Shown here in pieces: positions 43,417-45,144 of a stretch of DNA of 64,000 bases. The DNA comes from Hydrogenophaga sp. (GTDB lineage Bacteria; Pseudomonadota; Gammaproteobacteria; Burkholderiales; Burkholderiaceae_C). Location: the NCBI GenBank assembly GCA_016741995.1, contig JACVCO010000006.1:62001-126000 (forward strand). Reading direction: 5' to 3'. A model generated the notes under the pieces. It saw nothing but the letters and a program-made list of their open reading frames with translations. It searched no databases and was not told the origin of the DNA. Both the position numbers and the translations under genes were made by a program. Positions within the stretch are counted from its first letter, which is position 1. Each line of letters opens with the position of its first letter.

Positions 43417-45144
43417 ATGGCAGTGCTCATCCCCGATACGCCGAAAGACTGTACGCGAAGCGAGCGCGTCGTCTATCAGAGACTCGGTGAGGAACTCGAC
43501 AAGGACTGGGTCGTTCTCCACTCGCTCGGGCTGGTGAACCACGAGACGAAGCGACGCGGCGAGGCAGACATCGTCGTCCTGAGCACCCGCGGCATCTTCG
43601 TTCTCGAGGTCAAGGGCGGTCACGTCTCCTGCCGGGATGGCAAGTGGTACTTCGGAACACCCGGCGAAAAGGAAGTCGAGCGCAAAGAAGACCCCTGGTC
43701 CCAGGCATCCGGTGCAATGTTCGCGGTGATCAAGCGGATCAAGGTCGACGCGCCAGACCTCGATGGCCTGCTGTACGGATTCGGCGTCGTAATGCCGATG
43801 GAGCGGTTCACCACCAAGGGCATGGAGATCGACCCCGAGGTGCTGCTGGACAAGCGCGATTTCGGCAGGAACCTCTCCTTCTACATTGGCGACCTCGAGC
43901 GTCGATGGCGGCAGATCCACTCCGAGCGAGGTCTCCGCGAGCCGCGGCGGCCGACCATGGAGGACATCAAGCGGATTCGCAAGATCCTGCGACCCAACAT
44001 CGAGTCCGCGTTCAGCCTTGGCTCATGGCTGAACGGTCTGGAGCAGGAACTGCTTCTACTGACGAACGAGCAGATCCGGATCTCGCGAAGGCTGGCAGCC
44101 AATCCGCGCATGATCGTCACGGGCAAGGCGGGAACGGGCAAGACCGTGCTCGCCGTGCAGCGCGCACTGCTCCTGGCCGAGAGCGGCCTGTCGGTCCTGT
44201 ATCTCTGTTTCAACCAGTTGCTAGCGCGCCATGTCGCTGAGACGATCAAGGGCCGAGCGGGTGCCGACAAGATCACGGTCCGTCATCTGCACGGGCACTA
44301 CCGGGACGCGATCGCCGCGGCGGGCCTACAGGACAGGCTTCCCTCGGCGACAGGGGACCAGACACACGCCTACGGCGTCGTGTTCCCGCAGCTCTACGTC
44401 GAGGCCCTAATGGAGACTGAGCCGAAGCCATTCGACTCCGTTGTAGTGGACGAGGCGCAGGACATCCTCACTGCCGAGCACCTCGATGCGCTGGACCTCT
44501 CTGTCGATGGCGGGCTGGAGTCGGGCCGCTGGCACCTGTTCCTGGACCCGCAGCAGAACATATACGGCAAGCTGTCAGAAAAGGCAGAGAAGCGCCTCGA
44601 CCGGATCAGCATCGCGCGCGACGAGCTTCTCGACAACTGCCGGAACACTCGGGAGGTCGCGTACCAGACCTCGATCCTCTCCACGCTGGACGTCGCAGTC
44701 GAAGGCGCGCCCTCGGGGCCGTCGTGCGAATGCATCTTCTACGACACGCCTGCCGATGGCTTGGCCCGCATCGAGACGGAGCTGAAACGGCTGCTCGATG
44801 CCGACGTGAAGCCGTCCGACATCATCATCCTCTCGACCCGCCGAAGGGAGAACTCGATGATCGCCGGCAAGGCCGTCTTAGCGGGCCTGCCGGTGCGGGA
44901 AGCTTCCGACGGACCTGCTTCGAAATCCATCGCCTTCTGCACGATGCACGCCTTCAAGGGGCTGGAGCGATCCGTGGTGATCGCCATCGACATGGGCGAG
45001 ATCGGTCAGATCGAATGGGCCATGATTCACTATGCAGGCCTCTCACGAGCCAGAACGCTCCTCCTACCTATCGTTCCGAAATACTGCGCGCCAAGCTACA
45101 AGGTCCTAACCGAGTCCTTCGGACGCCGTATCAGTCGAACATAA
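43417..45144 (+). CDS. NERD nuclease domain fused to SF1 (UvrD-like) helicase
   Basis: N-term SERVVYQRLGEELDKDWVVLHSLGLVNHETKRRGEADIVVLSTRGIFVLEVKGG (NERD D..ExK), then VTGKAGTGKTVLAVQRALLL (I), VVVDEAQDI (II), FLDPQQNIYG (III), FCTMHAFKGLERSVVIAIDM (V), HYAGLSRARTLLLPI (VI). Confidence 0.87.
   Translation: MAVLIPDTPKDCTRSERVVYQRLGEELDKDWVVLHSLGLVNHETKRRGEADIVVLSTRGIFVLEVKGGHVSCRDGKWYFGTPGEKEVERKEDPWSQASGAMFAVIKRIKVDAPDLDGLLYGFGVVMPMERFTTKGMEIDPEVLLDKRDFGRNLSFYIGDLERRWRQIHSERGLREPRRPTMEDIKRIRKILRPNIESAFSLGSWLNGLEQELLLLTNEQIRISRRLAANPRMIVTGKAGTGKTVLAVQRALLLAESGLSVLYLCFNQLLARHVAETIKGRAGADKITVRHLHGHYRDAIAAAGLQDRLPSATGDQTHAYGVVFPQLYVEALMETEPKPFDSVVVDEAQDILTAEHLDALDLSVDGGLESGRWHLFLDPQQNIYGKLSEKAEKRLDRISIARDELLDNCRNTREVAYQTSILSTLDVAVEGAPSGPSCECIFYDTPADGLARIETELKRLLDADVKPSDIIILSTRRRENSMIAGKAVLAGLPVREASDGPASKSIAFCTMHAFKGLERSVVIAIDMGEIGQIEWAMIHYAGLSRARTLLLPIVPKYCAPSYKVLTESFGRRISRT

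What the first reader, a model, noticed from the sequence alone, without database searches (positions are those of the whole stretch)
43417..45144. NERD nuclease-SF1 helicase fusion as the possible DNA-degrading effector in place of DrmC
Seen: N-terminal NERD pattern (GEADIVVLSTRGIFVLEVKGG) followed by a full set of SF1 motifs, starting 1 bp after drmB. Known: NERD is a predicted nuclease domain with a D..ExK-type active site, and DISARM's nuclease-like subunit DrmC is a PLD protein, absent here. Inference: this fusion fills the nuclease role and adds its own translocase.
Basis: partly seen in the sequence, partly recalled or inferred. Interest (0 to 1): 0.8.

Follow-up and report, generated by a model that had tools for sequence, protein, structure and literature searches.

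The report
DISARM relative with NERD nuclease-helicase subunit
A bacterial anti-virus gene cluster related to DISARM carries, in place of its usual nuclease gene, a fused DNA-cutting and DNA-motor protein; the same arrangement recurs in at least eight bacterial phyla, which suggests an answer to what cuts DNA in DISARM-type systems that lack the usual nuclease.

Summary
ORF 43417-45144(+) encodes 575 aa: a NERD domain (Pfam 40.4 bits, cut-off 22.1) plus a complete SF1 helicase, starting 1 nt after drmB. E16, D51, E64 and K66 are identical in all 97 relatives with readable positions. The predicted N-terminal fold has the PD-(D/E)xK order, although no single PDB match is significant. In the window's branch the protein is an inherited core subunit: UvrD-DrmA-DrmB-NERD-helicase is fixed in 18/18 close relatives, and NERD-helicase divergence tracks DrmA (Mantel r=0.97, against 0.14 for the methylase). 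Across about 70 DrmA loci in at least eight phyla with this protein, none has DrmC. In a DrmA/DrmB-first sample, 18 loci carry the NERD-helicase, 12 carry DrmC and none carries both. DrmC-linked DrmAs form one branch of the DrmA tree. Most likely this is a DISARM-related lineage whose nuclease slot holds an Nhi-like nuclease-translocase acting with DrmAB. That it cuts phage DNA is inferred. It fails DISARM's DrmC criterion and just misses NCBI's DrmA cut-off, so I call it a new DISARM-related variant, not classical DISARM. The methylase and Vsr look exchangeable.

The parts
34133..34642 (+). Vsr-type nicking endonuclease (exchangeable partner, usually found with the C5 methylase)
   Evidence: TIGR00632 151.6 bits, cut-off 97.85; Pfam Vsr 106 bits
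34639..36174 (+). DNA cytosine-5 methyltransferase, DrmMII/Dcm-like
   Evidence: PADLOC DrmMII 290 bits; TIGR00675 133.8 bits, cut-off 100.65
36280..38256 (+). UvrD-like SF1 helicase, core gene of this lineage (ORF opens at 36262)
   Evidence: Pfam UvrD-helicase 80.5 bits; always precedes DrmA in close relatives; Mantel r 0.96 with DrmA
38280..41519 (+). DrmA-like SF2 helicase (ATG at 38280; ORF opens at 38199)
   Evidence: PADLOC DrmA 753 bits; NF038325 929.4 bits against cut-off 950; start codon
41523..43415 (+). DrmB (DUF1998/MZB) protein
   Evidence: NF038324 496.4 bits, cut-off 240
43417..45144 (+). NERD nuclease-SF1 helicase fusion (the finding)
43417..44016 (+). NERD / PD-(D/E)xK domain, about residues 1-200; predicted active site E16 (43462), D51 (43567), E64 (43606), K66 (43612)
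   Evidence: Pfam NERD residues 15-108; invariance; AlphaFold2 pLDDT 87, pTM 0.84, alpha-beta-beta-beta-alpha-beta order; PDB fold matches dominated by PD-(D/E)xK nucleases
44056..45120 (+). SF1 helicase core, about residues 214-568; Walker A 44122-44145, Walker B DEAQD 44449-44463, motif VI GLSRA 45037-45051
   Evidence: Pfam PF09848/PF13245; closest PDB folds SLFN11, Upf1, UvrD, Dna2, RecD2; invariant motifs

Best explanation
The window holds a DISARM-related anti-phage operon in which the NERD-SF1 helicase is a core subunit, co-inherited with UvrD, DrmA and DrmB, and occupies the place that the PLD nuclease DrmC has in classical DISARM. Proposed mechanism: DrmAB detects and loads on foreign, exposed-end or unmodified DNA (shown by others for DISARM). 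The NERD-helicase, recruited to the DNA that DrmAB opens, translocates by its SF1 motor and cuts with its NERD PD-(D/E)xK site, much as the single-gene nuclease-helicase Nhi nicks and unwinds phage DNA. Host DNA would be spared by the C5 methylase or by other cues. Shown here: gene order, mutual exclusion with DrmC, co-divergence with DrmA/DrmB, conserved catalytic residues, fold order. Inferred: nuclease activity, DNA as substrate, contact with DrmAB, phage protection.
For: Family matches. Fixed order UvrD-DrmA-DrmB-NERDhel in 18/18 close relatives, with DrmB-NERDhel gaps of -13 to +4 nt in those measured. DrmAB plus NERDhel in 57 of 81 loci found by NERDhel alone, in three different gene orders. 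No DrmC hit in those loci. DrmA/DrmB-first sample: 18 NERDhel, 12 DrmC, 0 both, 6 neither; P(0 both)=1.5e-5, not corrected for relatedness. One change of state on the DrmA tree. Mantel r DrmA-NERDhel 0.97 in type A and 0.93 in type B, about as high as DrmA-DrmB (0.98, 0.985), against 0.14 (methylase) and 0.27 (Vsr) in type A. Catalytic residues identical in 97/97. Structure. Nhi and DISARM background: PMC12904381, PMC9142583.
Against: No single PDB fold match of the N-terminal domain is significant (best E=0.033). DrmC, the supposed functional counterpart, is dispensable in tested DISARM (PMC9142583), so the slot may not be the main effector. Some DrmAB operons have neither nuclease (L171, L172, L175, L213, L217, L218). 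NERDhel relatives also exist without DrmAB (for example L037, L038, L042). Vsr is another candidate nuclease in the window. In type B loci the methylase does track DrmA (r=0.86), so its exchangeability holds for the window's branch only. The deepest nodes of the DrmA tree are only moderately supported (DrmC branch 83/67).
Confidence: 0.68

Rival explanations
1. The NERD-helicase is a subunit of the system, but its target is not phage DNA: it is a backup suicide effector that cuts host DNA or RNA when infection is not contained, as proposed for the NERD domains of PglW (BREX type 2) and DndF.
For: NERD domains in PglW and DndF are proposed to be backup suicidal effectors (PMC12839542, PMC10853773). 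The closest helicase folds include RNA-acting Schlafen and Upf1 proteins.
Against: DISARM-family and ARMADA protection is described as direct and DNA-centred (PMC9142583, PMC12458937). Nhi, a nuclease-helicase with a NERD domain listed for Nhi-like systems, nicks and unwinds DNA (PMC12904381, PMC10952713). In type A loci the subunit co-diverges with the DrmAB core, which fits a core rather than a bolt-on role.
Confidence: 0.17
2. The NERD-helicase is an independent Nhi-like single-gene defence that happens to sit next to DISARM-like genes in defence islands.
For: NERD-helicases occur without DrmAB in about a dozen loci with full flanks, mostly Clostridia, and as the PADLOC families RTasNERD-Hel and C3a187.
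Against: Overlap or 1-4 nt junction with drmB in all measured type A operons; r=0.97 co-divergence with DrmA; 18/18 conserved neighbours; mutual exclusion with DrmC.
Confidence: 0.05
3. The effector nuclease is Vsr (34133-34642), or a host nuclease, and the NERD-helicase mainly serves as a translocase or sensor.
For: Vsr is present in many of these loci; Vsr-type domains are the predicted active nucleases of ARMADA (PMC12458937). DISARM has been suggested to recruit host PLD nucleases (PMC9142583).
Against: Vsr is missing from several loci and does not co-diverge with DrmA (r=0.27); Vsr classically repairs T:G mismatches made by C5-methylated DNA (established knowledge). The NERD catalytic residues are identical in every relative, which a pure translocase would not need.
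Confidence: 0.1

Closest known systems
DISARM classes 1 and 2 (drmA, drmB, drmC with drmD/drmMI or drmE/drmMII)
   Same: DrmA-like helicase, separate DrmB (DUF1998) and a DrmMII-like C5 methylase; one lineage (type B) also has DrmE (NF038316 388.8 bits, cut-off 80).
   Different: No DrmC (PLD). The window has a NERD-SF1 helicase and a UvrD-like helicase instead, with no DrmD or DrmE. DrmA falls just under NCBI's DISARM cut-off (929.4 against 950).
Nhi (nuclease-helicase immunity)
   Same: One polypeptide with an N-terminal nuclease and a DUF2075/SF1 helicase; NERD is listed as the domain of Nhi-like systems (PMC10952713).
   Different: Nhi acts as a single gene. This protein matches PADLOC's Nhi profile only weakly (19.6 bits, helicase part) and is tied to DrmAB.
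TALON / ARMADA / Druantia (other YprA-family systems, PMC12458937)
   Same: YprA-family helicase with a PD-(D/E)xK nuclease; TALON has a NERD nuclease.
   Different: Those helicases are ARMADA/Druantia-like and carry the DUF1998 part in the same chain. Here DrmA and DrmB are separate genes, as in DISARM, and the NERD domain is fused to an SF1 helicase. That preprint describes PLD as the DISARM nuclease and mentions NERD only for TALON.
RTasNERD-Hel and C3a187 'NERD+UvrD' (PADLOC)
   Same: Same domain order; best PADLOC matches (109.9 and 77.7 bits).
   Different: RTasNERD-Hel belongs to reverse-transcriptase (DRT) systems; there is no reverse transcriptase in this operon.

Membership tests
DISARM | DrmB (DUF1998) encoded as a separate gene next to DrmA | tested here: met
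   NF038324 496.4 bits over cut-off 240; genes 3 nt apart
DISARM | DrmA of the DISARM type | tested here: inconclusive
   NF038325 929.4 bits, just under cut-off 950; PADLOC DrmA 753 bits; the DrmA tree joins it with DrmC-type DrmAs rather than Dpd
DISARM | DrmC PLD nuclease in the operon | tested here: not met
   No PLD on the window's contig; no DrmC in relatives with the NERD-helicase
DISARM | DNA methyltransferase (DrmMI or DrmMII) | tested here: met
   PADLOC DrmMII 290 bits
DISARM | DrmD (class 1) or DrmE (class 2) | tested here: not met
   No match shown for the six island proteins; the UvrD gene is not related to DrmE by profile comparison
DISARM | Protection against phages | not testable with these tools
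   Needs experiment
NERD family of PD-(D/E)xK nucleases | NERD profile match above cut-off | tested here: met
   40.4 bits against 22.1
NERD family of PD-(D/E)xK nucleases | Intact E...D...ExK active site, conserved | tested here: met
   E16, D51, E64, K66 in 97/97 readable relatives
NERD family of PD-(D/E)xK nucleases | PD-(D/E)xK fold | tested here: inconclusive
   High-confidence model with the right element order; top PDB matches mostly PD-(D/E)xK (Hjc, Bax1, R2 endonuclease, Can2, McrC) but best E=0.033
Nhi | Nhi-family sequence | tested here: not met
   PADLOC Nhi only 19.6 bits, helicase part
Nhi | Single-gene system | tested here: not met
   Tied to UvrD-DrmA-DrmB in all close relatives
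TALON | YprA helicase with C-terminal RNase H fold, TPR-CSD and TBP genes | tested here: not met
   None of these families among the island genes

The most novel reading that the evidence does not exclude
Classical DrmC-containing DISARM is one branch of a broader family of DrmA/DrmB defence systems whose other branches mostly use a NERD nuclease-SF1 helicase as built-in effector with different helper proteins (UvrD; DrmE with AIPR; short UvrD with an unknown 520-aa protein). In the window's branch the methylase is a loosely coupled, swappable part, so self/non-self recognition does not depend on one cognate methylase.
Probability: 0.5. Interest if true: 0.8.

Novelty: new variant of a known kind. 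Interest (0 to 1): 0.7.

Why it matters
How DISARM destroys phage DNA is open. The structural study of DrmAB states that DrmC is dispensable, often missing from annotated operons and did not co-purify, and it guessed at borrowed host nucleases (PMC9142583). A nuclease-motor fusion locked into DrmAB operons across at least eight phyla, mutually exclusive with DrmC in this sample, gives a concrete, mutable candidate effector. Finders that require DrmC would miss or mislabel these systems; here they are at least as common as DrmC-type ones in samples of Pseudomonadota and Bacillota genomes.

Tried and rejected
1) DrmC hidden elsewhere: the PLD search of the whole genome found three genes on other contigs, and the DrmC profile found none in NERD-helicase loci. 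2) UvrD gene as a divergent DrmE: hhalign probability 0.1%. 3) Short UvrD plus unknown gene of type C as a split DrmE: no relation. 4) NERD-helicase as DrmE: no profile match. 5) Pure neighbour coincidence: rejected by co-divergence. 6) Recent mobile insertion at an empty site: the flanking aldehyde dehydrogenase has no orthologue in genus relatives, so no empty site could be shown; only the lower G+C of the island (0.60-0.65 against about 0.70) supports transfer. 7) A canonical DrmE+DrmC class 2 locus was not met in the Bacillota sample, so its place in the DrmA tree is untested. 8) A literature search for a named NERD-type DISARM found none in the open library; subscription papers are not covered.

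Full report
What is there. The reading frame 43417-45144(+) encodes 575 residues with ATG start, one base after the drmB stop. Pfam finds NERD at residues 15-108 (40.4 bits, cut-off 22.1) and the Schlafen-group-3/DUF2075 helicase (32.6 bits, cut-off 24). The gene is the last of six co-oriented genes in an island of lower G+C (about 0.60-0.65 in a region near 0.70): Vsr, a DrmMII-like C5 methylase, a UvrD-like SF1 helicase, DrmA, DrmB and the NERD-helicase. DrmB passes NCBI's cut-off (496.4 against 240). DrmA is just under NCBI's DISARM cut-off (929.4 against 950). There is no DrmC; the genome's three PLD genes are on other contigs.

Is the nuclease site real? In an alignment of 62 N-terminal regions down to about 30% identity, E16, E49, D51, E64 and K66 do not vary. 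In all relatives collected, E16, E64 and K66 are identical in 97 of 97 readable sequences and D51 in 98 of 98. Walker A K242 is K in 98 of 99, and D345/E346 are kept in 99 of 99. The AlphaFold2 model of residues 1-215 (pLDDT 87, pTM 0.84) shows helix 14-26 (carrying E16), strands 32-41, 45-55 (D51) and 60-65 (E64, next to K66), helix 93-111 (Q96) and strand 120-126, which is the order of the PD-(D/E)xK core. Against the PDB no hit reaches E 0.001. The best are nevertheless mostly PD-(D/E)xK enzymes: archaeal Holliday-junction resolvases, Bax1, R2 endonuclease, Can2, McrC. I read this as supportive rather than conclusive on its own; profile, invariant residues and element order together make a NERD nuclease very likely. 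The full-length model (pLDDT 90) matches human SLFN11 (E=2.6e-17), Upf1, UvrD, Dna2 and RecD2, which I take to be through its motor. Translocation polarity is not settled.

Is it part of the system? A genome-wide scan with the protein alone gave 79 loci, plus two from viral contigs. DrmA lies next to it in 57 of these 81. The closest relatives (47-90% identity) all have UvrD-DrmA-DrmB-NERDhel in that order (18 of 18; type A). More distant ones have methylase-AIPR-DrmE-NERDhel-DrmA-DrmB (type B; DrmE 388.8 bits, cut-off 80) or DrmA-DrmB-short UvrD-unknown-NERDhel (type C). The type A junction with drmB is an overlap of 13 nt or a gap of 1-4 nt in all 15 loci measured. Within type A, pairwise divergence of the NERD-helicase follows that of DrmA (Mantel r=0.97) and DrmB (0.98), as closely as DrmA follows DrmB (0.98). 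In the same loci the methylase (0.14) and Vsr (0.27) do not, which serves as an internal control against shared species history. In type B the methylase does follow (0.86), so its exchangeability is specific to the window's branch.

Does it stand in for DrmC? To avoid circularity I sampled genomes by DrmA or DrmB, not by the NERD-helicase, fetched neighbourhoods and searched them with a DrmC profile; two of its matches were confirmed as PLD proteins by Pfam. Of 36 loci classified, 18 carry the NERD-helicase, 12 carry DrmC (one of them, L211, only as a weak fragment), 6 carry neither and none carries both; P(none with both)=1.5e-5 without correction for relatedness; Pseudomonadota alone p=2e-4, Bacillota alone p=0.08. 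All loci collected by the NERD-helicase also lack DrmC. On DrmA trees of 71 and 39 sequences, the DrmC/NERD-helicase states need a single change, and DrmC-linked DrmAs form one branch (support 97 SH-aLRT in the first, where three loci with neither gene also fall inside it; 83/67 in the second). The NERD-helicase lineages include Pseudomonadota, Acidobacteriota, Bacillota, Bacteroidota, Actinomycetota, Planctomycetota, Verrucomicrobiota and Myxococcota.

How it probably works. Published work on DISARM shows that DrmAB binds unmodified 5'-overhang DNA without sequence preference and is activated there; the nuclease step is unexplained because DrmC is dispensable, often missing and did not co-purify (PMC9142583). 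Nhi shows that a single nuclease-helicase chain can nick and unwind phage DNA (PMC12904381). The simplest reading is that in this lineage the NERD-helicase is the built-in nuclease-translocase acting on DNA opened by DrmAB and UvrD, while a C5 methylase marks self. The steps beyond gene order, conservation and co-divergence are inferred. The main rival is a suicidal backup role, as proposed for NERD domains in PglW and DndF (PMC12839542, PMC10853773).

Placement. It is DISARM-related but does not meet the DrmC, DrmD or DrmE criteria and just misses the DrmA cut-off, so I do not file it as classical DISARM. It works like Nhi but is not Nhi by sequence or by organisation. The 2025 survey of YprA-family systems describes PLD as the DISARM nuclease and mentions NERD only for TALON (PMC12458937). 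I found no description of a NERD-type DISARM in the open literature searched, with the limit that subscription papers are not covered. Verdict: observation confirmed, interpretation partly supported, new variant of a known kind.

Noticed in passing
L020:1367-7777, L023, L024, L031, L214, L216: Type B loci place an AIPR (MzaE-like) abortive-infection protein and a DrmE-family protein directly before the NERD-helicase, DrmA and DrmB; this DrmE plus NERD-helicase combination without DrmC looks like a distinct layout.
   Followed up: partly
L051:8429-9985: Type C loci carry a conserved protein of about 520 aa with no Pfam, PADLOC or NCBIfam match between a short UvrD-like helicase and the NERD-helicase.
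   Followed up: no
window 34133-36174: In type A loci the C5 methylase and Vsr move independently of the DrmA core (upstream, downstream or on the opposite strand; Mantel r 0.14 and 0.27).
   Followed up: partly
L081 (IMG/VR contig): A contig listed as viral carries the whole type B operon; it may be a mobile element carrying defence cargo or a mislabelled host piece.
   Followed up: no
L037, L038, L042, L046, L047: NERD-helicases of about 560-590 aa without DrmA/DrmB within 10 kb, probably stand-alone Nhi-like systems.
   Followed up: no
L213, L217 (two copies in one genome): DrmE-like, DrmA and DrmB genes with neither DrmC nor NERD-helicase nearby.
   Followed up: no
L119:4153-13621, L121: DrmC-type DISARM loci with an extra SF1 helicase before DrmA (in L119 together with a DUF2290 gene), resembling the known Helicase+DUF2290 pair joined to DISARM.
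   Followed up: no
L002 and L004 downstream of the NERD-helicase; L003, L005, L026: In L004 a BPTD_3080-family restriction enzyme with an adenine methylase (same gene clusters in L002), and in L003, L005 and L026 a DrmD-like SNF2 helicase, follow the type A operon directly.
   Followed up: no
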